A DNA stretch of 64,000 nucleotides from Streptomyces sp. NRRL WC-3742. GTDB taxonomy: Bacteria; Actinomycetota; Actinomycetes; Streptomycetales; Streptomycetaceae. The translations under genes were made by a program, and so were the position numbers. The notes under the pieces were generated by a model that was given only the letters and a program-made list of their open reading frames with translations, was not told the DNA's origin and did not search any database. Position 1 is the stretch's first letter, and the number at the start of each line of letters is the position of its first letter. Of the stretch, positions 1,863 through 11,141 are shown piece by piece. The stretch lies in assembly GCF_000720635.1 (NCBI RefSeq), contig NZ_JOCF01000001.1, forward strand, positions 1-64,000, given 5' to 3'.

Positions 1863-3035
1863 TTACTTGTTGGCCAGCTCGGCGGCGCGGTCAGCGGCGC
1901 CGTCCATGGTGTCCACGCGCTGGACCAGCGGGTGGTTGGCGTCGTCGAGGATCTTGCGACCCAGCTCCGCGTTGTTGCCGTCCAGGCGGACGACGAGCGG
2001 CTTGGTGACGTTCTCGCCCTTGCTCGCGAGGAGCTCCAGGGCCTGCACGATGCCGTTGGCGACCGCGTCGCACGCGGTGATGCCGCCGAAGACGTTGACG
2101 AAGACCGACTTGACGTCGGGGTCGCCCAGGATGATCTCCAGGCCGTTCGCCATGACCTCGGCCGAGGCGCCGCCGCCGATGTCGAGGAAGTTGGCGGGCT
2201 TGACGCCGCCGTGGTTCTCGCCGGCGTAGGCGACCACGTCGAGGGTGCTCATGACGAGGCCCGCGCCGTTGCCGATGATGCCGACCTGGCCGTCGAGCTT
2301 GACGTAGTTCAGGCCCTTGGCCTTGGCGGCCGCCTCGAGGGGGTTGGCCGCGGCCTTGTCCTCGAGCGCCTCGTGCTCCGGCTGACGGAACTCGGCGTTC
2401 TCGTCCAGGGAGACCTTGCCGTCGAGCGCGATGATCTTGCCGTCGCCGGACTTGATCAGCGGGTTGACCTCGACGAGGAGGGCGTCCTCCTTGATGAAGA
2501 CGGTCCACAGCTTCTGCAGGACGTCGGCCACCTGGTCGGCGATCTCGGCCGGGAACTTCGCCGCGGCGACGATCTCGGCGGCCTTCTCCGGGGTGCAGCC
2601 CTCGTTGGCGTCGACCGGGATCTTGGCGAGCGCGTCGGGGTTCTGCTCGGCGACGACCTCGATCTCCACGCCGCCCTCGACGCTGGCCATGGCCAGGAAG
2701 GTGCGGTTGGTGCGGTCCAGCAGGAACGAGACGTAGTACTCGTCCTTGATGTCGGCGGTCTGGGCGAGCATCACCTTGTGAACGGTGTGGCCCTTGATGT
2801 CCATGCCGAGGATCTCGCCGGCCTTGGCGACGGCGTCGGCCGGGTCGGCGGCGAGCTTCACGCCACCGGCCTTGCCTCGGCCACCCACCTTCACCTGAGC
2901 CTTGACGACGGCGCGGCCGCCGAAGCGCTCCGCGATGGCGGCAGCGTCTGCGGCGGTCTCGATGACATCGCCGTCAAGCACGGGCACACCGTGCTTGGCG
3001 AAGAGGTCCCTCGCCTGGTACTCGAACAGGTCCAC
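1863..3035 (-). CDS. sucC: Succinyl-CoA synthetase beta subunit
   Basis: 390 aa from a GTG start ([20 protein letters not shown]), chosen because an AAGGAC site lies 6 nt upstream and family members begin exactly there; the open frame continues to 3293 but the extra 86 residues are not SucC-like. It contains an N-terminal ATP-grasp domain ([18 protein letters not shown]; acidic metal-binding ALLVEVNPL) and a C-terminal ligase/flavodoxin-like domain ([36 protein letters not shown]). First gene of the sucCD operon; its promoter should lie in 3036-3350. Confidence 0.97.
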
Positions 3036-3350
3036 GTGTTTGTCCTTGTTCGTGGTCGCGGATTGTGTCTCTACGAGCGTGCCACGGCAGGATCTTCGCT
3101 GCGGGTCGTCGGGGCAGGTGCGGGTACGCAGAGGTACGGCCTTGCGGCCCACACAGCCACGGGCGCACACGTCAATCAACACGCGCGTCACGTCCGTCTG
3201 GCAGGTTATCCCCGTGGGACGGGCCAGTTCCGCCCGGGGGCCTCCCCGTCTTGGGTGAGAACCGTCACAGCCGGGCTGGGACACCTTGTCCACCGATCGG
3301 ATGAATTCACACCTCTGGGTGAACGATCACCGTCCGTCCGTGGCGCCCTC
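3036..3350. other. Intergenic region upstream of sucC
   Basis: About 315 bp with no supported gene, between the sucC start and the vWA gene stop, both on the minus strand. It must hold the sucC promoter. One inverted repeat, TTCAC-N8-GTGAA at 3306-3323, could be an operator, but a 5-bp arm is weak evidence. No convincing -35/-10 pair was found. Confidence 0.5.
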
Positions 3351-4505
3351 CTATTGCGGCTGCGGGATGGGCCGCTTCTCGATCGCGGCGGCCATGATCT
3401 CCGGGAACGCGTCCGGAGTGCAGGCGAAGGCGGGGGCGCCGAGCGAGGCCAGGGCGGCGGCGTGGGCGTGGTCGTACGCGGGCGCCCCTTCGTCGGAGAG
3501 CGCGAGCAGGGCGATGAACTGGACCCCGGCCGCCTTCATCGCGGCGACCCGCTTGAGCATGCCGTCGCGGATGCCGCCCTCGTACAGGTCGCTGATCAGG
3601 ACGACGATCGTCTCGGAGGGGCGGGTGATCCTGGACTGGCAGTAGGCGAGCGCGCGGTTGATGTCGGTGCCGCCGCCGAGCTGGGTGGCGAAGAGGACGT
3701 CGACCGGGTCGGTCAGCTGTTCGGTGAGGTCGACCACCGAGGTGTCGAAGACGACGAGCCGGGTGTCCAGGGTGCGCATCGAGGCGAGCACCGCGCCGAA
3801 GACGGCGGAGTGGACGACCGAGGGCGCCATCGAGCCGGACTGGTCGATGCAGAGGATGACGTCCTTCTTCACCGCGCGCTGGGCACGGGCGTAGCCGACC
3901 AGCCGCTCGGGCACCACGGTGCCGTGCTCGGGCAGGTAGTTCTTGAGGTTGGCCCGGATGGTGCGGTCCCAGTCGATGTCGCGGTGCTTGGGGCGGTTGA
4001 CCTTGGCGCTGCGGTCGAGGGCGCCGCCGAGGGTGGCCCGCGTACGGTCGGCGAGGCGGCGCTCCAGGTCGGCGACCACCTTGCCGACGACGGCCCGGGC
4101 CGTCTCCCGTGTGGTCTCGGGCAGCGCGTGCTTGAGCGAGAGCAGGGTGCCGACCAGGTGGACGTCCGGCTCGACGGCCTCGAGCATCTCCGGCTCCAGC
4201 AGCAGCCGGTCCAGGCCGAGGCGGGAGATCGCGTCCTGCTGCATCAGCTGCACGACGGTGGACGGGAAGTACTCGCGGATGTCGCCCAGCCAGCGGGCGA
4301 CCTGCGGGGCCGAGCCGCCGAGACCGGCGCTGCGCCGGGCGCCCCTGGCGGGGCGGCCCCCCTCCTCGGGGGCCGAGCGGTAGAGGGCGGCGAGGGCGCC
4401 GTCCATCGCGGCGTCGCGGCCGCGCAGGGTGCAGCCGGTGCCGTCCGCCTCGCCGCCGAGGACGAGGCGCCAGCGGCGCAGGCGTTCGTCGGTCGTGGTC
4501 GCCAT
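3351..4505 (-). CDS. vWA (CoxE-like) domain protein of the MoxR-DUF5682 island
   Basis: 384 aa, no signal peptide, so cytosolic. The C-terminal half is a von Willebrand A domain with a complete metal-ion-dependent adhesion site: DQSGS at residues 221-225, a conserved Thr in LGGGTDINRAL, and Asp in VLISDLYEGG. The N-terminal ~200 residues are helical and charged. MoxR ATPases with a vWA partner are a known pairing in which the AAA ring remodels a target presented by the metal-binding vWA protein. It is the last gene of a three-gene leftward operon (MoxR, DUF5682, vWA); the final repeat unit upstream supplies a GAGGAG ribosome binding site. The substrate is unknown. Confidence 0.9.
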   Translation of the reverse strand: MATTTDERLRRWRLVLGGEADGTGCTLRGRDAAMDGALAALYRSAPEEGGRPARGARRSAGLGGSAPQVARWLGDIREYFPSTVVQLMQQDAISRLGLDRLLLEPEMLEAVEPDVHLVGTLLSLKHALPETTRETARAVVGKVVADLERRLADRTRATLGGALDRSAKVNRPKHRDIDWDRTIRANLKNYLPEHGTVVPERLVGYARAQRAVKKDVILCIDQSGSMAPSVVHSAVFGAVLASMRTLDTRLVVFDTSVVDLTEQLTDPVDVLFATQLGGGTDINRALAYCQSRITRPSETIVVLISDLYEGGIRDGMLKRVAAMKAAGVQFIALLALSDEGAPAYDHAHAAALASLGAPAFACTPDAFPEIMAAAIEKRPIPQPQ

Positions 4506-4510
4506 CGGGG

Positions 4511-4572
4511 TCTCCTCGGATCTCTTCGGGTCTCGTCGGGTCTTGTCAGGTCTCGTCGGGTCTCGTCGGTTC
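4511..4572. repeat. 10-bp tandem repeat between DUF5682 and vWA genes
   Basis: About six copies of a decamer related to TCTCGTCGGG run without a break from just upstream of the vWA start to the DUF5682 stop. On the minus (coding) strand the unit is CCCGACGAGA, and the copy nearest the vWA gene has become GAGGAG, its apparent ribosome binding site. Confidence 0.85.
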
Positions 4573-6963
4573 TCAGGTGTCGCGGCCGGCGGGCTGGCGG
4601 GGAATGACGGGGCGGATGCCGAGCAGCAGGGCCACCACCGGGACGGCGGCGTCGGCGCGGGCCCGGTCGAGCTCGCCGGAGGCGGCGGGTGCCGCCGGGG
4701 CCTCGCCGAGCGGGCCAGCGGCGACCCGGGAGCCGATGGTGGTGCGCACCCCGGTCTCCAGGGCGGAGAAGGTGCGGCGCAGCAGCGGCAGGACGTCGGT
4801 GAAGACCTCGCCGCCGACGCCCGTCAGCCACTCGTCGAGCAGGGCGAGCAACCGGGGGTCGTGCAGCAGCAGGGCGCCGCCGCCGGTGAGGAAGCCCTCG
4901 ATCCAACCGGCCGCGTCCACCGGGGAGTTGGCGGCGGACAGGACGAGCCGCAGGCGGCGGGAAGCCTCGTCGGAGTCGAGCCGGCCGTCGTCCAGCAGCA
5001 GCCGGACGGCACGGCCGCGCAGCAGGCCGGGGGCGCCGGTGGCCGGGCCCGCGCTGGGCTCGCGGCGGGCGAGGGCGCGCAGGGTGGCGGCCCAGCGGTC
5101 CGCGAGCCCGTCGCCGTTCTCCTCGGCCCGTTCCGCGTCCGTCTGCTCCGCGTCCGTCTGCTCCGCGTCCGTCTGCTCCGCGTCCGTCTGCTCCGCGCCG
5201 GAGCCCAGCAGGCCGATCGCGCCGTGCACCTCGTCCAGCCGGGCGCGCATCGCGGCGGCGCTCTCGGCGTCCAGCCCGACGCAGGCGCTCGGCAGGCCGA
5301 CGCAGATCCGGTCGGCCAGGCCCGTGGCCGCCTCGGCCAGGGCGCCGTGGTCGGTGCCGCGCACGTCGCCGTAGCGCAGCGCCCGGACGAGCGCGGGCAG
5401 GGCACTCGCCAGGTGGGCGACGTCGGTGTCCAGTGCGGCGCAGTCGGCGAGCACCCGCATCACGGCGGGCAGGGCGGCGGACAGGTGGGCGAGCAGGCAG
5501 GTCTCCACCAGGCCCGTCAGCTCGGCGAGTTCGACGGCCGCGCGGGCGGTGCCGACCGCCTTGTTGACGGCCGCCTCCTCGACCGTGGTGCCCCACTGGG
5601 CGGCCTCGGCGATCCGCACGGCGAACTCGGGCTGCCAGCACAGCCGCCAGCTCTCCCGGAACGTGCCGGTGGAGTTGACGGAGGAGCGGGCGGGCACGCC
5701 CCAGTCGACGCCGAGCAGCCGCAGCCGGTGCAGCAGCCGGGAGCGGGCCGCGTCGGTGTCCTTGCGCAGGTCGAGGTCGAGATCCTTGGGCGCGGCCTCG
5801 GGCTTGAGGCGCAGGGTGCGCTGCAGGCGGGTGAGGTCGCGCTGCAGCGGCACCGCCGGTGCGGCGTCCGGGACTTCGCCGAGGGCGTCGCCGATGACCA
5901 GGCCGTCGCGGACGAGTTCCAGGGCGACGTCGGAGCCGTCGCAGAGCACCGCGCGCACGGCGTCCAGCGTCTCGGTGAGGCCCGCGAGGGGGCGGCCGCG
6001 CACCACCGCGAGGGTCTCGGCGAGGCGGACGGCCTCGATGACGTGGGCGGAGGAGACGGGGTGGTCCTGGGCGCGCAGCAGGTCGGCGGCCCGGGTGAGC
6101 CAGCGCGGCACCGGGTCTCCCTCGGTGGCGAACAGGTGGTGGTACCAGCCGGGCGAGGGCACGCCGGCGCCGTAGCCGGAGGACTGGGCGAGGCGGCGGT
6201 GCGTCCACGGGACCCAGGTGATGTCCGTCTTCAGCTTCTTCGGCAGCTCGGCGAGCAGCGCCCGGTCATGGGCGACGGTCGGCATGCTCTCCAGCGCGGG
6301 GACGTGGAAGGCGCCGCAGACGACGGCGATCCGCCGGTACCCGGCGCGGCGGGCCGCGCGGATCTGCTGGCGCATGTGGGCCTCGCGCCGCAGGTCGCGG
6401 CGGGACTCGCCGAGGCCCTCGGCGCGCAGGGCGCCCATGGCCTCGGCGACGGCGGCGAAGGGGGCGAGCGGGTCGGCGGTGGGGGTGCGGTGCTCGACCA
6501 CGTCCTCCCACCAGCGCTCCGCGTCGTCGTGCCCGGCGGCCTCGGCGAGCAGGGCGAGCGGGTCGGCGGCGGGCTCCTCCCCCGGCTCCTTCCCCGGCTC
6601 CTCCCCCGGCGTCTCCTCGGCGGGCGCGAAGCCGTATGCGGCGGGCAGGTCGATGAAACGCACCGGCAGGTCGTGCTCAACGCCGTACCGGATGGCCACC
6701 CACTCCGGGGAGAACTCGGCGTACGGCCAGAAGGCGGCCTTCGCCGGGTCGTCCACCGCGTGGGCGAGCAGGGCGACGGGCGGCACGAGGTCCTTCTCGG
6801 CGGCGAGGTGGACGATCGCGTCCGCCTCGGGCGGGCCCTCGATCAGCACCGCGTCCGGCCGCCAGTGCGCCAGCGCGGCGGCCACCGCCCTGGCCGAGCC
6901 GGGCCCGTGGTGGCGGATCCCCAGCAGGGCGACCTCTGGGCCCGTCTCGGCCCGGCCCGTCAT
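4573..6963 (-). CDS. DUF5682 family protein
   Basis: 796 aa, cytosolic, no membrane segments. Recognised as DUF5682 from the N-terminal block GIRHHGPGSARAV (residues 15-27), the strand VLIEGPPEAD, RFIDLPAAYGF, and a later block IAVVCGAFHVPAL. The spacing of a GxxH first strand, an acidic second strand and a late GxxH strand recalls the TIKI/TraB/EreA-like putative metal-dependent hydrolase fold; that relation is my inference. The rest is alpha-helical and poorly conserved. Two low-complexity inserts are present: GEEPGKEPGEEP (coded near 6570-6610) and (EQTDA)4. Start ATG overlaps the MoxR stop (ATGA), implying translational coupling. The function is not established. Confidence 0.85.
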   Translation of the reverse strand: MTGRAETGPEVALLGIRHHGPGSARAVAAALAHWRPDAVLIEGPPEADAIVHLAAEKDLVPPVALLAHAVDDPAKAAFWPYAEFSPEWVAIRYGVEHDLPVRFIDLPAAYGFAPAEETPGEEPGKEPGEEPAADPLALLAEAAGHDDAERWWEDVVEHRTPTADPLAPFAAVAEAMGALRAEGLGESRRDLRREAHMRQQIRAARRAGYRRIAVVCGAFHVPALESMPTVAHDRALLAELPKKLKTDITWVPWTHRRLAQSSGYGAGVPSPGWYHHLFATEGDPVPRWLTRAADLLRAQDHPVSSAHVIEAVRLAETLAVVRGRPLAGLTETLDAVRAVLCDGSDVALELVRDGLVIGDALGEVPDAAPAVPLQRDLTRLQRTLRLKPEAAPKDLDLDLRKDTDAARSRLLHRLRLLGVDWGVPARSSVNSTGTFRESWRLCWQPEFAVRIAEAAQWGTTVEEAAVNKAVGTARAAVELAELTGLVETCLLAHLSAALPAVMRVLADCAALDTDVAHLASALPALVRALRYGDVRGTDHGALAEAATGLADRICVGLPSACVGLDAESAAAMRARLDEVHGAIGLLGSGAEQTDAEQTDAEQTDAEQTDAERAEENGDGLADRWAATLRALARREPSAGPATGAPGLLRGRAVRLLLDDGRLDSDEASRRLRLVLSAANSPVDAAGWIEGFLTGGGALLLHDPRLLALLDEWLTGVGGEVFTDVLPLLRRTFSALETGVRTTIGSRVAAGPLGEAPAAPAASGELDRARADAAVPVVALLLGIRPVIPRQPAGRDT
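5136..5195. repeat. Four perfect 15-bp tandem repeats inside the DUF5682 gene
   Basis: The 15-mer CGTCCGTCTGCTCCG occurs four times in phase with codons and encodes (EQTDA)n, an acidic flexible linker. Copy number may vary between strains. Confidence 0.9.
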
Positions 6964-8042
6964 ACCGTCACCTCGCGGGCGGCGCGGTAGAAGTCCTTCC
7001 AGCCGTCGCGCTCGCGCACCACCCCTTCGACGTACTCGCGCCAGACGGCCCGGTCGGCCACCGGGTCGCGGACGACGGCGCCGAGGATGCCGGCCGTCAC
7101 GTCGCCGGCGCGCAGCACGCCGTCACCGAAGTGGGTGGCCAGGGCGAGGCCGTTGGTGACCACCGAGATCGCCTCGGCGGTGGACAGGGTGCCGCTGGGG
7201 GTCTTGACCTTCGTCCGGCCGTCCACGGTGAGGCCCGCGCGCAGCTCGCGGAAGACGGTGACCACGCGCCTGATCTCCTCGGCGCCGCCCGGCAGTTCGG
7301 GCAGGTCGAGGGAGCGGCCGAGCTGGTTGACGCGGCGGGTGACGATGTCGACCTCCTCGTCCAGGGAGGACGGCAGCGGCAGCACCACGGTGTTGAAGCG
7401 GCGGCGCAGCGCGCTGGAGAGCTCGTTGACGCCGCGGTCGCGGTCGTTGGCGGTGGCGATCACGTTGAAGCCGCGCACGGCCTGGGTCTCGCCGCCCAAC
7501 TCCGGTATGGGGAGCGTCTTCTCGGACAGGATGGTGATCAGACTGTCCTGCACGTCGGCGGGGATGCGGGTCAGCTCCTCGACCCGGGCGATCTTGCCGT
7601 CCGCCATCGCCCGCATCAGCGGCGAGGGCACCAGGGCGTCCCGGCTGGGGCCGTGGGTGAGCAGCTGGGCGTAGTTCCAGCCGTAGCGGACGGCCTCCTC
7701 CGGGGTGCCGGCGGTGCCCTGCACCAGCAGCGTGGAGTCCCCGCTGATCGCCGCGGCCAGGTGCTCCGACACCCAGGTCTTCGCGGTGCCCGGCACGCCG
7801 AGCAGCAGCAGCGCGCGGTCCGTGGCCAGGGTGGTGACGGCGACCTCCACGACGCGGCGCGGGCCGATGTACTTGGGGCTGATCGCGGTGCCGTCCGGCA
7901 GCTCACCGCCGAGCAGGTAGGTGGCCACGGCCCAGGGTGAGAGCTTCCAGCGCTCGGGGCGGGGGCGGTCGTCCTGGGCGGCCAGCGCGGCCAGTTCACC
8001 GGCGAACGCGTCCTCGGCGTGCTGCCGCAGAACGTCGGTCAT
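6960..8042 (-). CDS. MoxR-type AAA+ ATPase
   Basis: 360 aa, starting MTDVLRQHAEDAFAGELAAL; this ATG has an AAGGAG site 6 nt upstream, whereas the open frame's earlier start at 8138 adds non-conserved residues. It is a single AAA+ domain: Walker A GVPGTAKT (residues 82-89), Walker B IARVEELTRI (~151-160) with a Glu-Glu pair, sensor 1 VIATANDRD, and arginine finger ALRRRFN. MoxR proteins act as hexameric chaperones or metal-insertion machines with vWA partners. First gene of the leftward arm of the island, overlapping DUF5682 by 4 bp; the divergent SWIM gene begins 157 bp away. Confidence 0.93.
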   Translation of the reverse strand: MTDVLRQHAEDAFAGELAALAAQDDRPRPERWKLSPWAVATYLLGGELPDGTAISPKYIGPRRVVEVAVTTLATDRALLLLGVPGTAKTWVSEHLAAAISGDSTLLVQGTAGTPEEAVRYGWNYAQLLTHGPSRDALVPSPLMRAMADGKIARVEELTRIPADVQDSLITILSEKTLPIPELGGETQAVRGFNVIATANDRDRGVNELSSALRRRFNTVVLPLPSSLDEEVDIVTRRVNQLGRSLDLPELPGGAEEIRRVVTVFRELRAGLTVDGRTKVKTPSGTLSTAEAISVVTNGLALATHFGDGVLRAGDVTAGILGAVVRDPVADRAVWREYVEGVVRERDGWKDFYRAAREVTV

Positions 8043-8199
8043 CTCGGACTCCTTCGGGTCGGCCGGCGGGCATGGGAATGCCCGGGTGATGAGGTCGTCG
8101 GGGCTTGTGGGAACCAGCCTGCACCCCGGCACTGACAACGGCCGCGACCACCGGACGGAAGGTCAGCCGCTGTCAGTGGCACCGCCTACGGTCGGTCGC
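8043..8199. promoter_or_regulatory. Divergent promoter region of the MoxR/SWIM island
   Basis: 157 bp between the MoxR start (minus) and the SWIM gene start (plus); it must drive both arms. I could not assign a consensus -35/-10 pair for either direction by eye. Confidence 0.5.
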
Positions 8200-9525
8200 A
8201 TGGAGGAACGCTGGAGCACCGAACACGTCCTGTCCCTGGCCCCTGACGCCTCGTCGCAGAAGGCGGCGGGCAAGCTCTCCTCGCCCGCGCCGTGGTCCGG
8301 CACGGGCACCGACGGCACCGCGCTCTGGGGCGAGTGCAAGGGCAGCGGCAGCACGCCCTACCGCACCGTGATCGAGCTGGCCACGCCCGCGTACCAGTGC
8401 AGCTGCCCCAGCCGGAAGTTCCCGTGCAAGCACGCGCTCGGGCTCCTCCTGCTGTGGAGCGGCAGCCCGGAGGCCGTCCCCGCCGCCGAACCGGCCGACT
8501 GGGCCGACGACTGGCTGAAGGCCCGCGCCGAACGCGCTGAGAAGAGCGCCGAGAAGAGCGCGGAGAAGCGCGCCTGCGCGGAGCCCGCCGACCCCGAGGC
8601 CGCCCGCCGCCGGGCCGCCAGGCGCGGCGCCCGGGTCGCGGCCGGGGCGGCCGAGCTGCGGCTGCGCCTGGCCGACCGGGTCCGCCACGGCCTGGCCGAC
8701 CAGAGCACCGCCGGCCCCTGGGAGGAGGTCGCCGCCCGCATGGTCGACGCGCAGGCCCCCGGCCTGGCCACCCGCGTCCGGGAGCTGGACGCGCTGCCGC
8801 AGGAGCGCCTGCTGGAGGAGTACGCCCTGCTGCACCTGCTGGCCACCGCCGCCACCCGGACGGACGAGCTGCCGCCCGCGCTGGCCGCCACCGTCCGCAG
8901 CCGGGTCGGCTACACCCTGGACGCCGCCGAGGTCCTCTCCGGCCCGACCGTACGGGACCGCTGGCTCGTCCTCGGCTCGCGCGACACCTCCGACGAGCGG
9001 CTCACCACCCGCCGGGTCTGGCTGCGCGGCGCCAAGACCGGCCGCCCCGCCCTGCTGCTGGCCTTCGGCCGCCCCGGCCAGGCGCCGGACCTCGCCCTGC
9101 CCACCGGCCACCTGCTGGAGGCCGAACTCGCCTACCACCCCGGCACCCACCCGCTGCGCGCCGCGCTCGGCACCCGCTACGGCGCGCCCGAGCCGGGCCC
9201 GGCCGCCGCGCCCGACGGCCTGACCGTCGCCGAGGCGGTGGCCGGGTACGGCACGGCCGTCGCGGACGACCCGTGGCTGGAGAGCCGGCCGACCGTCCTC
9301 GCCGAGGTCGTCCCCGTCCGCACCCCGGACGGCTGGTACCTGACGGACGGCCACCACACCGTGCCCGTCCGCGCCTCGGCCGTCCCGGAGGCGGCGCTGT
9401 GGCGGCTGGCCGCCGTCTCCACCGGCCGCCCGCTGACCGTCTTCGGCGAGTACGGCCACCAGGGCTTCGCCCCGGTCACGGCCTGGGCCGCCGACCAGCG
9501 GCCGGTCGGCCTCTCGAACCTCTAG
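8200..9525 (+). CDS. SWIM zinc-finger family protein
   Basis: 441 aa from MEERWSTEHVLSLAPDASSQ, the start typical of these proteins; the open frame runs 279 bp further upstream across the divergent promoter and was rejected. A SWIM zinc finger is present as C67-x-C69-x6-C76-x-H78 (YQCSCPSRKFPCKHALGLLL). SWIM fingers bind nucleic acid or protein partners. The remainder is helical and Ala/Arg-rich, with a short coiled-coil-like AEKSAEKSAEK repeat near residue 110 and a C-terminal domain with WYLTDGHHTVPV. It is followed after 11 nt by the DUF5691 gene, whose AGGAG ribosome site overlaps this stop codon, so the two are co-transcribed. Role within the island unknown. Confidence 0.88.
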   Translation: MEERWSTEHVLSLAPDASSQKAAGKLSSPAPWSGTGTDGTALWGECKGSGSTPYRTVIELATPAYQCSCPSRKFPCKHALGLLLLWSGSPEAVPAAEPADWADDWLKARAERAEKSAEKSAEKRACAEPADPEAARRRAARRGARVAAGAAELRLRLADRVRHGLADQSTAGPWEEVAARMVDAQAPGLATRVRELDALPQERLLEEYALLHLLATAATRTDELPPALAATVRSRVGYTLDAAEVLSGPTVRDRWLVLGSRDTSDERLTTRRVWLRGAKTGRPALLLAFGRPGQAPDLALPTGHLLEAELAYHPGTHPLRAALGTRYGAPEPGPAAAPDGLTVAEAVAGYGTAVADDPWLESRPTVLAEVVPVRTPDGWYLTDGHHTVPVRASAVPEAALWRLAAVSTGRPLTVFGEYGHQGFAPVTAWAADQRPVGLSNL

Positions 9526-9536
9526 GAGCACCGCAC

Positions 9537-11141
9537 ATGACCATCACCCAGGACCCGTGGGAGACCCTGCACACCACCGCGCTGCTCGGCACCGACCGCC
9601 GCCCGCTCCCGGCCACGGGTCTGCCGCTCGCCGACGCCGTGGACGGCTCCGACCCGGCCACCGCGCTGCTGGAGCTGGCCGCGCTCGCCGCCGTCCGCCG
9701 CCGGGCGGGGGCGCTGCCCGTCCCCGCCGCCGAACCGCCCGGCCCGGCCGCGCCCGAGGACGGCCGCCCCGAACTGCCCGCCGCGGCCGCCCGGCGGCTG
9801 GCCGTGCTGCTCACCGGCCGCGCCGGCGGCACAGCCGGCACCCTGGCCAACCTGGCCGAGCTGCTGCCGCAGTGGCTCGACGCCGCCCGCGCCCGGGGCC
9901 TGCGCCCGCCCGCCGCGCTGATACCCGGCCTGCTCGACGCCGCCCGCGCCCGCAGCGAGCTGCGGCCCGACGCCGTCGCGCTGGCGGGCCCGCCGGGGCG
10001 CTGGCTGGCGGAGCAGAACCCGGACTGGCGGTTCGTGCTGCGCACCCCCGCGGAGCCGGGCGGCATCGGCGCACCCACCGCCCCCGCCGAGGACCACCAG
10101 CCCTGGCACGAGGGCCTGTTCGCCGAGCGGGTCACCCACCTCACCCAGCTGCGCCGCCGCGATCCGGCCGCCGGTCTGGAGCTGCTGCGCGGCACCTGGG
10201 CCACCGAGCGCGCCGAGGACCGGCTGCTGTTCCTGGACGCCCTGCAGGACGGCCTCTCCATCGCCGACGAGCCGTTCCTGGAGGCCGCCCTCGGCGACCG
10301 CAGCAAGAACGTCCGCGCCACCGCCGCCGAACTGCTCTCCACCCTGCCCGGCTCCGCCCTGGCCGCCCGGATGGCCGAGCGCGCCCGCGCCGCCGTACGC
10401 CTCGCCGAGGCCGGCACCCATCTGCTGGTCACCCCGCCCGCCGAGTGCGACGCGGCCATGCAGCGCGACGGCATCGCGCCCAAGTCCCCCACCGGGCGCG
10501 GCGAGCGGGCCTGGTGGTTCGGCGAGCTGGTGGCCGCCGCCCCGCTCTCGACCTGGCCGGAGAACACCGGTCTGACGCCCGAACGGCTGCTCGCCCTGCG
10601 GGTGGGCGACAGCATCGACGAGACCAGCAGCAGCTGGGCCGACGACCTGCGGGAGGCGTGGGCGCGCGCCGCCGTCCGCCAGCACGACGCCGAGTGGGCC
10701 CGGGCGCTGCTCGGCCCCGCCCCCGCCCCGCCCGCCCGGGGCGCCGGACGGGCCCGCGCCCCGCGCGCCACGGGCGCCCCGGCCAAGCTGCTGGCCGTCC
10801 TGCCGCCCGAGGAGCGGGCCGCCTGGACGGCGGCGTTCATCGAGGTCCACGGCCTGGGCGAGGCGTTCCAGCTGCTGGGCTCCTGCACCACGCCGTGGAC
10901 GCCGCCGCTGTCCACCGCCGTGGTGACGGCCCTGGCCCGGGCCGCCTCCTCCGGCGCGTACCCGTGGAGCCACAGCGGGGTGCTCGGCATGACGGAACGC
11001 GCGCTCGCGCCCGAAACGGCCGCCTCCGTCGAGGAGTTGGCATCGGGCGCCGCTCCGGACTCGGCCTGGTCGGAGACCTTCGCCCGGTTGGCCGGCACCC
11101 TGCGCTTCCGGGCGGCGATGCTGGCCGAACTGGACGCCTGA
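9537..11141 (+). CDS. DUF5691 family protein
   Basis: 534 aa starting MTITQDPWETLHTTALLGTD, with an AGGAG site formed across the upstream stop (TAGGAG). Almost wholly alpha-helical with HEAT-like repeats (for example FLEAALGDRSKNVRATAAELLSTLPGSALA around residue 250), a pattern of protein-protein scaffolds. The opening TTALLGTDRRPLP is the recognisable family signature. No catalytic motif is seen. Second gene of the rightward arm; it ends 13 nt before a strong terminator. Function unknown; probably a scaffold or adaptor for the MoxR-vWA machine, by context only. Confidence 0.85.
   Translation: MTITQDPWETLHTTALLGTDRRPLPATGLPLADAVDGSDPATALLELAALAAVRRRAGALPVPAAEPPGPAAPEDGRPELPAAAARRLAVLLTGRAGGTAGTLANLAELLPQWLDAARARGLRPPAALIPGLLDAARARSELRPDAVALAGPPGRWLAEQNPDWRFVLRTPAEPGGIGAPTAPAEDHQPWHEGLFAERVTHLTQLRRRDPAAGLELLRGTWATERAEDRLLFLDALQDGLSIADEPFLEAALGDRSKNVRATAAELLSTLPGSALAARMAERARAAVRLAEAGTHLLVTPPAECDAAMQRDGIAPKSPTGRGERAWWFGELVAAAPLSTWPENTGLTPERLLALRVGDSIDETSSSWADDLREAWARAAVRQHDAEWARALLGPAPAPPARGAGRARAPRATGAPAKLLAVLPPEERAAWTAAFIEVHGLGEAFQLLGSCTTPWTPPLSTAVVTALARAASSGAYPWSHSGVLGMTERALAPETAASVEELASGAAPDSAWSETFARLAGTLRFRAAMLAELDA

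What the first reader, a model, noticed from the sequence alone, without database searches (positions are those of the whole stretch)
3351..11141. Two-armed MoxR-vWA-DUF5682 / SWIM-DUF5691 island
Five genes around one 157-bp divergent promoter: an AAA+ MoxR ATPase coupled by ATGA to DUF5682 and then a vWA protein, and in the other direction a SWIM zinc-finger protein coupled to a helical-repeat DUF5691 protein. Two are named only as domains of unknown function. The MoxR/vWA pair implies an ATP-driven remodelling machine. The DUF5682 GxxH...E...GxxH pattern hints at a metal-dependent hydrolase, and SWIM suggests nucleic-acid or partner recognition. Related MoxR-vWA ternary systems have been proposed by others to act in conflict or stress; the biochemical role of this five-part set is, to my knowledge, not established.
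Basis: partly seen in the sequence, partly recalled or inferred. Interest (0 to 1): 0.75.

Follow-up and report, generated by a model that had tools for sequence, protein, structure and literature searches.

The report
DNA-damage-linked five-protein ATPase machine
Five neighbouring genes of unknown biochemical role make up one widely conserved protein machine, and its switch sequences here and in some other bacteria point to it being turned on when DNA is damaged, so its job is probably damage recovery rather than fighting phages.

Summary
Observation confirmed: vWA 3351-4505(-), DUF5682 4573-6963(-), MoxR 6960-8042(-), a 157-bp gap, SWIM 8200-9525(+), DUF5691 9537-11141(+). The arms are one system: 72 of 80 DUF5682 loci (the best hits to one actinobacterial query) hold all five genes, usually as one operon SWIM>DUF5691>MoxR>DUF5682>vWA. 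Natural SWIM::DUF5691 and DUF5682::vWA fusions suggest two sub-assemblies. The divergent layout was seen only in Streptomycetaceae.

The main new point is regulation. The gap holds an exact published PafBC (RecA-independent DNA-damage) promoter motif for the SWIM arm and a one-base variant for the MoxR arm, both in 15 of 15 Streptomycetaceae loci. The exact motif precedes SWIM in 18 of 54 other actinobacterial loci and 0 of 23 others. A second DUF5682 operon in this genome and recA also carry it. The same kind of operon is known in Deinococcus as ddrTUVWX (radiation-induced, function unknown); E. coli yehLMP(Q) is a distant cousin.

The DUF5682 N-domain's best structural neighbours appear to be TraB/TIKI-family proteins (moderate support). 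Proposed: a damage-induced MoxR/vWA remodelling machine. Induction was not measured here; the substrate is unknown. No link to known defence systems was found.

The parts
3351..4505 (-). vWA protein (VWA_CoxE; relative of E. coli YehP, and of DdrX by position), intact MIDAS
4573..6963 (-). DUF5682 protein: N-terminal TraB/TIKI-like alpha/beta domain (about residues 5-231) plus C-terminal alpha-solenoid; relative of E. coli YehM
6960..8042 (-). MoxR-type AAA+ ATPase, YehL-like (42% identity to YehL); start taken as ATG 8042 after a GGAG site; the open frame runs on to TTG 8138
8116..8137 (-). MoxR-arm promoter element TGTCAG-N10-CA-N3-T: the PafBC motif with one changed base; the same variant in 15 of 15 Streptomycetaceae loci
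8171..8192 (+). SWIM-arm promoter element TGTCAG-N10-TA-N3-T: exact match to a published PafBC (RecA-NDp) motif variant, 7 bp before the SWIM ATG
8200..9525 (+). SWIM zinc-finger protein, CxC-x6-CxH
9537..11141 (+). DUF5691 protein; helical-repeat (alpha-solenoid) fold judged from the model of a natural SWIM::DUF5691 fusion of another species (L043)

Best explanation
The island is the Streptomycetaceae form of a widespread five-protein machine, the same kind as Deinococcus ddrTUVWX, made as part of the DNA-damage response. Shown by sequence: five genes kept together across phyla, in two modules (SWIM+DUF5691, and DUF5682+vWA with MoxR), with damage-type promoter motifs before SWIM in many actinobacteria. 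Reported by others: the Deinococcus deserti operon is radiation-induced and IrrE/DdrO-dependent. Inferred: on damage, single-stranded DNA activates PafBC, which switches on both arms. MoxR forms a hexamer that the vWA protein plugs into, as NorD does in NorQ. The vWA carries DUF5682. SWIM and the DUF5691 solenoid recognise a target, probably protein on or near damaged DNA. ATP hydrolysis remodels that target, and the TraB/TIKI-like domain of DUF5682 acts on it, perhaps by hydrolysis.
For: (1) Unit: 72 of 80 genome-contig loci hold all five genes; with 13 loci from the phylum survey and the window, 86 five-gene loci give 60 as one operon, 10 with SWIM::DUF5691 fused, 14 divergent, 2 with vWA split off. 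The same order is annotated in Deinococcus taeanensis and Rhizobium plasmid records. (2) DUF5682::vWA fusion in a second MoxR operon of this genome. (3) Exact published PafBC motif (PMC8151990) within 120 bp upstream of SWIM: 15/15 Streptomycetaceae, 18/54 other actinobacteria, 0/23 others; reversed motif 0 and opposite strand 0 in all three groups, shuffles expect 0.0, 0.0 and 0.01 loci. (4) Own genome: 16 hits of TGTCAGTG-N8-TA-N3-T, reversed control 0; they include recA (L127) and the DUF4132 gene that opens the second DUF5682 operon. 10 of 13 loci with other actinobacterial DUF5682 operon types have one motif on the operon strand; the opposite strand of the same 242 kb has 3, reversed patterns 0. 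(5) The genome has a WYL/WCX gene, with a second WYL gene next to it, near a Pup-ligase gene: a pafBC candidate. (6) ddrTUVWX: first gene SWIM, last gene VWA CoxE-like, SWIM gene >10-fold radiation-induced and IrrE-dependent, RDRM upstream (PMC5552922, passages). D. taeanensis: RDRM-like site before SWIM, 2 mismatches in 15, equalled in 7 of 1000 shuffles.
Against: No expression was measured in the window's organism. 36 of 54 other actinobacterial loci lack the exact motif upstream of SWIM (21 of 54 have at most one mismatch to a longer form). None of 23 non-actinobacterial loci has it, and no alphaproteobacterial SOS-type box (pattern recalled) was found directly before the Rhizobium operon. 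The MoxR arm lacks an exact motif in 15 of 15. The motif is missing in 3 of 13 other-type loci (L022, L023, L034), and in L031 and L033 it lies over 500 bp before the long frame that precedes MoxR. PMC9380542 (passages) says the M. smegmatis PafBC motif did not appear conserved in S. venezuelae. The M. smegmatis PafBC proteomics paper PMC5656591 does not contain the word SWIM; whether that species has the operon was not checked. Profile comparison of DUF5682 to TraB and erythromycin esterases is not significant. The remodelling step, the complex and the target are inference only.
Confidence: 0.62

Rival explanations
1. Metal-insertion chaperone: like NorQ/NorD, the MoxR/vWA pair matures a metal site, perhaps that of DUF5682 itself or of a repair enzyme, and damage only raises its expression.
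For: Solved relatives of the MoxR by sequence are Midasin (44.9 bits) and NorQ (31.8 bits); the vWA belongs to the CoxE family; PMC13036017 (abstract and passages) proposes a twisting force on NorD that drives iron insertion into cNOR; DUF5682 keeps His/Glu/Asp residues that could bind a metal.
Against: No gene family was found next to the operon in more than 9 of 72 five-gene loci, so no standing client enzyme is seen (3.5 kb each side, flank genes not annotated); damage-type regulation is not expected for a housekeeping maturase.
Confidence: 0.2
2. Phage-conflict or cell-suicide system akin to MoxR-vWA-VMAP ternary systems, using DNA damage as an alarm signal.
For: Ternary MoxR-vWA systems have been proposed as conflict systems in multicellular bacteria (PMC7159879, abstract start in the listing and one passage); relatives occur in 26 of 72,556 plasmid-collection records, several of them chromosome-sized.
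Against: PADLOC 0 of 5 proteins; bpMoxR below cut-off; no variable effector slot, the same five genes in the phyla sampled; sucC kept nearby in 9 of 9 same-family loci; 1 of 50,697 phage records. A defence role not yet described cannot be excluded.
Confidence: 0.1
3. Ordinary stress chaperone: a general MoxR quality-control complex with no DNA-related target, drawn into the damage regulon because damage also harms proteins.
For: Other MoxR proteins act as chaperones (PMC3893208 and PMC11432383, abstract starts in the listing); SWIM can mediate protein as well as DNA binding (recalled).
Against: Different damage regulators seem to control relatives: PafBC-type here, DdrO in Deinococcus, and a LexA-type box before yehF, i.e. 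the WGR/DUF4132 part of the E. coli region, with none before yehL. That suggests a dedicated role.
Confidence: 0.15

Closest known systems
ddrTUVWX of Deinococcus deserti (PMC5552922, passages read)
   Same: Five-gene set; first gene SWIM, last gene VWA CoxE-like; the D. taeanensis operon of the same layout encodes homologues of the window proteins: MoxR 70%, vWA 53%, DUF5682 42%, SWIM 36%, DUF5691 only a short local match of 34% over 71 aa plus a Pfam DUF5691 match of 53.7 bits; damage-type regulation.
   Different: One operon under DdrO/RDRM there; two divergent arms with PafBC-type motifs and no RDRM here (best 5 mismatches). The D. deserti proteins themselves were not compared, and PMC5552922's passages do not name the three middle genes beyond 'conserved protein'.
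E. coli K-12 yehL-yehM-yehP-yehQ
   Same: MoxR, DUF5682, vWA, SWIM in this order; YehL 42%, YehM 27%, YehP 37% identity.
   Different: No DUF5691 hit in E. coli (control list); YehQ has a SWIM finger but no other detectable similarity to the window protein; preceded by WGR/DUF4132-type genes yehF-yehI.
NorQ/NorD and RavA/ViaA MoxR-vWA pairs
   Same: AAA+ ring plus vWA partner with MIDAS; NorQ detectable at 31.8 bits.
   Different: Two core proteins; no DUF5682, SWIM or DUF5691 (recalled). RavA and ViaA are not matched at E<=10 by phmmer or by the family profiles; the ViaA model reaches 21.5 bits against a cut-off of 500.
TraB/TIKI/erythromycin-esterase superfamily
   Same: GxxH and E/D motifs at strand ends (motif recalled); likely top structural neighbours.
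   Different: Sequence profiles do not connect significantly; large C-terminal solenoid and MoxR/vWA partners.
MoxR-vWA-VMAP / beta-propeller ternary conflict systems
   Same: MoxR and vWA components.
   Different: No propeller or effector match among the five proteins; bpMoxR below the model cut-off.

Membership tests
ddrTUVWX-type operon | Five genes starting with SWIM and ending with a CoxE-like vWA | tested here: met
   All five families present; homologous to the D. taeanensis operon; order changed to divergent arms.
ddrTUVWX-type operon | RDRM operator (DdrO control) | tested here: not met
   Best match in the 157-bp gap has 6 (+) or 5 (-) mismatches of 15; a PafBC-type motif stands there instead.
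ddrTUVWX-type operon | Radiation or DNA-damage induction | not testable with these tools
   Only motif evidence in the window.
PafBC (RecA-NDp) regulon | TGTC(GG/AG/AC)-N10-TA-N3-T before the SWIM arm | tested here: met
   Exact at 8171-8192.
PafBC (RecA-NDp) regulon | Same motif before the MoxR arm | tested here: not met
   TGTCAG-N10-CA-N3-T, one base off, in 15 of 15 loci.
PafBC (RecA-NDp) regulon | Regulator present in the genome | tested here: met
   WYL/WCX gene and neighbouring WYL gene near a Pup-ligase gene; orthology inferred from setting.
E. coli yehLMPQ system | MoxR, DUF5682 and vWA homologues adjacent | tested here: met
   phmmer 244, 136 and 241 bits.
E. coli yehLMPQ system | Linked WGR/DUF4132 gene | tested here: not met
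   Pfam of the four flanking frames tested shows sucD, sucC, pcrA and one without match; a DUF4132 gene opens the second, distant operon of this genome.
TraB/TIKI fold (DUF5682 N-domain) | Structural similarity to TraB-family proteins | tested here: inconclusive
TraB/TIKI fold (DUF5682 N-domain) | Conserved His/Glu/Asp residues near strand ends | tested here: met
   H18, H19, E42, E87, D105, E194, H220 invariant in 53 sequences; strands 10-16, 38-41, 101-103, 211-217. E87 and E194 lie on helices. Spatial clustering was not measured, as no coordinates were available.
TraB/TIKI or erythromycin esterase | Profile-profile similarity | tested here: inconclusive
   hhalign probability 2.5-2.7% (esterases), 0.2-0.6% (TraB), controls 0.1-0.3%.
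MoxR-vWA ternary conflict systems / known defence | bpMoxR or PADLOC match | tested here: not met
   bpMoxR 22.6 < 27; PADLOC 0 of 5.

The most novel reading that the evidence does not exclude
The machine is a bacterial counterpart, by convergence, of eukaryotic DNA-protein-crosslink removal (AAA+ unfoldase plus protease, as p97 with SPRTN; recalled): SWIM/DUF5691 finds protein stuck on damaged DNA, MoxR/vWA pulls it open, and the TraB/TIKI-like domain of DUF5682 cleaves it.
Probability: 0.1. Interest if true: 0.92.

Novelty: new variant of a known kind. Interest (0 to 1): 0.72.

Why it matters
A five-gene set found complete in at least six phyla (by record titles: Actinomycetota, Cyanobacteria, Bacteroidota, Planctomycetota, Pseudomonadota, Deinococcota) is known mostly by domain numbers. 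Linking it to DNA damage through at least two unrelated regulators turns 'function unknown' into a direct test in tractable strains, ties together separately named gene groups (ddrTUVWX, yehLMPQ, DUF5682/DUF5691), and gives DUF5682 a likely fold and candidate active-site residues to mutate. It also suggests a PafBC-type response in Streptomyces, which PMC9380542 left open.

Tried and rejected
Phage-defence reading: PADLOC, phage records and genomic setting gave no support. One viral-contig scan with E. coli YehM found nothing, but its patterns were narrow. A sixth shared gene: clustering of open frames within 3.5 kb of 72 five-gene loci gave a largest cluster of 9 loci (Kribbella, Williamsia, Amycolatopsis) and then clusters of 5; only the top 12 clusters were printed. 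Sequence link of DUF5682 to TraB or erythromycin esterase: Pfam at E<=10 on six N-domains gave no such family; hhalign not significant, though two weak stretches to the esterases, from two versions of the query alignment, were in consistent order; no PDB relative by profile, one chance-level row at E 2.6. Foldseek of the whole DUF5682 model against PDB lists mostly helical repeats, because the C-terminal solenoid fills the list; none at E<=0.001; in the VIA list the N-domain appears in one of 50 rows, and the tool warns that this part was barely tested. A SWIM::DUF5691 fusion model gave only weak solenoid matches, E>=1.4e-3. LexA-type boxes: an actinobacterial pattern was found in 1 of 92 stretches of up to 350 bp before SWIM (L039); E. 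coli yehF has one (12 of 16, 0 of 2000 shuffles; consensus recalled), yehL none; Rhizobium none directly upstream. I could not compute distances between conserved residues.

Rows dropped before counts: L021-L034 and L044, L045, L049, L055, L092, L104 have no SWIM hit by my profile and are not among the 92 loci of the promoter counts. The 8 of 80 loci without all five: L044, L092, L104, L108 (missing genes would lie beyond a contig end), L045 (upstream side cut, but no vWA downstream either), L049 (DUF5682 alone), L055 (no SWIM found), L110 (DUF5691 too short for my rule). Four DUF5691-bearing loci of the phylum sample (L016, L018, L019, L020) also fail that rule and are not in the 86. In D. 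taeanensis 15 of 18 annotated genes had their upstream region tested for the RDRM; the 14 other than SWIM have 5-6 mismatches.

My first SWIM profile absorbed DUF5691 from fused genes; counts split it by position. My simple gene caller sometimes chose wrong frames; core genes were placed by tblastn and profiles instead.
Full report
What is there. The five genes are confirmed at the stated coordinates and the gap is 157 bp. The window's MoxR matches E. coli YehL (244 bits) and its vWA matches YehP (241 bits), while RavA and ViaA are not matched at E<=10. E. coli K-12 has MoxR, DUF5682, vWA and SWIM genes in this order as yehL-yehM-yehP-yehQ, after WGR/DUF4132-type genes. The window's genome has a second DUF5682 locus in which DUF5682 and vWA are one 1234-aa protein next to a MoxR; a DUF4132 gene opens that operon.

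One system. In 296 Actinomycetota genomes, 21 have DUF5682 and 18 have DUF5691 over its cut-off; in all 18 the two span under 7.5 kb, with SWIM, MoxR and vWA beside them (in three of the 18, L016, L018 and L019, DUF5691 was seen by the Pfam search and not by tblastn). The divergent form comprises the window, eight genomes of its family, and named Streptomyces and Streptantibioticus contigs; I therefore call the group Streptomycetaceae, by inference. Titles of other five-gene loci name Cyanobacteria, Bacteroidota, Planctomycetota, Massilia and Thiofilum. Annotated plasmid records show the five in order in Deinococcus taeanensis and Rhizobium; Hymenobacter radiodurans has SWIM, DUF5691, MoxR and a broken DUF5682. 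A Bryobacterales contig has four of five (L055).

Regulation. Aligning the promoter region of 15 Streptomycetaceae loci showed two conserved blocks, one per arm. They fit the PafBC motif printed in PMC8151990 (passage: TGTCGG-10xN-TA-3xN-T, also TGTCAG and TGTCAC forms). PafBC is the regulator of the RecA-independent DNA-damage response in mycobacteria, and its promoter type (RecA-NDp) extends to other actinobacteria (PMC8223512, passages); a RecA-NDp promoter is reported for S. coelicolor recA and for the UV-inducible SCO6735 (PMC5087735, passages). With the published pattern, 15/15 Streptomycetaceae, 18/54 other actinobacterial and 0/23 other loci have an exact match within 120 bp before SWIM; reversed and opposite-strand controls are 0 in every group, and shuffles expect at most 0.01 loci per group. 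The loci of one family share ancestry and are not independent. The MoxR arm has CA for TA in 15/15. In the window's genome the longer form TGTCAGTG-N8-TA-N3-T occurs 16 times, its reversal never; one stands before recA, one before the second DUF5682 operon. Other actinobacterial DUF5682 operon types have one motif on the operon strand in 10 of 13 loci, against 3 on the opposite strand and 0 reversed in the same 242 kb; in L025, L026, L027, L029, L030 and L032 it ends within 90 bp of an open frame that starts the run of genes, in L031 and L033 over 500 bp before the long one. The genome has a WYL/WCX gene near a Pup-ligase gene, as expected for pafBC.

Deinococcus. PMC5552922 (passages) reports a five-gene D. 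deserti operon, first gene a SWIM protein (>10-fold radiation-induced, IrrE-dependent), last a VWA CoxE-like protein, with an RDRM upstream, of unknown function, named ddrTUVWX and present in several other Deinococcus species. The D. taeanensis operon has the five genes in the same order, homologous to the window's (DUF5691 only weakly), with an RDRM-like site before SWIM that 7 of 1000 shuffles equal. I did not compare the D. deserti proteins themselves. The window's gap has no RDRM. PMC8533742 (passages) reports DUF4132 and WGR proteins of D. radiodurans under DdrO and says E. coli MolR was described in the LexA regulon; yehF has an SOS-like box, yehL has none.

Mechanism and limits. That this is one unit with damage-type promoter motifs is shown; damage induction is reported for Deinococcus and inferred here; a MoxR/vWA remodelling cycle is inferred from NorQ/NorD (PMC13036017, abstract and passages); the target, and any hydrolysis by DUF5682, are conjecture. 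Searches for DUF5682 and DUF5691 in the held open-access library found no paper; two papers hold at least two of the names YehL, YehM, YehP, YehQ (listing only). ddrTUVWX was met through. So the operon is in print under another name; within the ten searches made I saw no paper tying it to Streptomyces, to PafBC or to yehLMPQ.

Noticed in passing
L024 (own genome C4:38000-57000): Second operon: DUF4132 gene (1228-2082), a very long conserved frame without Pfam match (to 7286), MoxR, DUF5682::vWA fusion, and a further conserved frame without Pfam match; PafBC-type motif at 1135.
   Followed up: partly
L031-L034: A third DUF5682 type in actinobacteria with separate vWA and MoxR and an extra conserved gene without Pfam match (tested in L031); the motif is present in three of four loci.
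   Followed up: partly
L115-L130: Genes behind the 16 exact PafBC-type motifs of this genome include recA, a C5 DNA methylase, an alpha/beta hydrolase, a SUKH-4 protein and unknowns (8 of the 16 first genes scanned with Pfam besides the window's SWIM and the DUF4132 gene): a candidate Streptomycetaceae PafBC regulon.
   Followed up: partly
L158 (Hymenobacter radiodurans plasmid): DUF5682 is annotated in three pieces and no vWA gene is annotated after it; a PDDEXK nuclease and a recombinase follow: looks like a decaying copy.
   Followed up: no
L045, L049 (cyanobacterial contigs): DUF5682 without vWA downstream; L049 also has about 10 kb upstream without MoxR, so DUF5682 may stand alone there.
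   Followed up: no
L106, L113 (Lentzea): vWA gene in a divergent position several kb away from the other four.
   Followed up: no
DUF5682 and SWIM::DUF5691 models: Foldseek lists the eukaryotic ZSWIM8-CUL3 complex chain 9rwz_M first for DUF5682 (E 2e-3, prob 0.63) and 22nd for the SWIM::DUF5691 model; probably shared helical repeats.
   Followed up: no
window 1863-3293(-): The called sucC frame has about 87 aa before the matched ligase domain; probably a too-early start.
   Followed up: no
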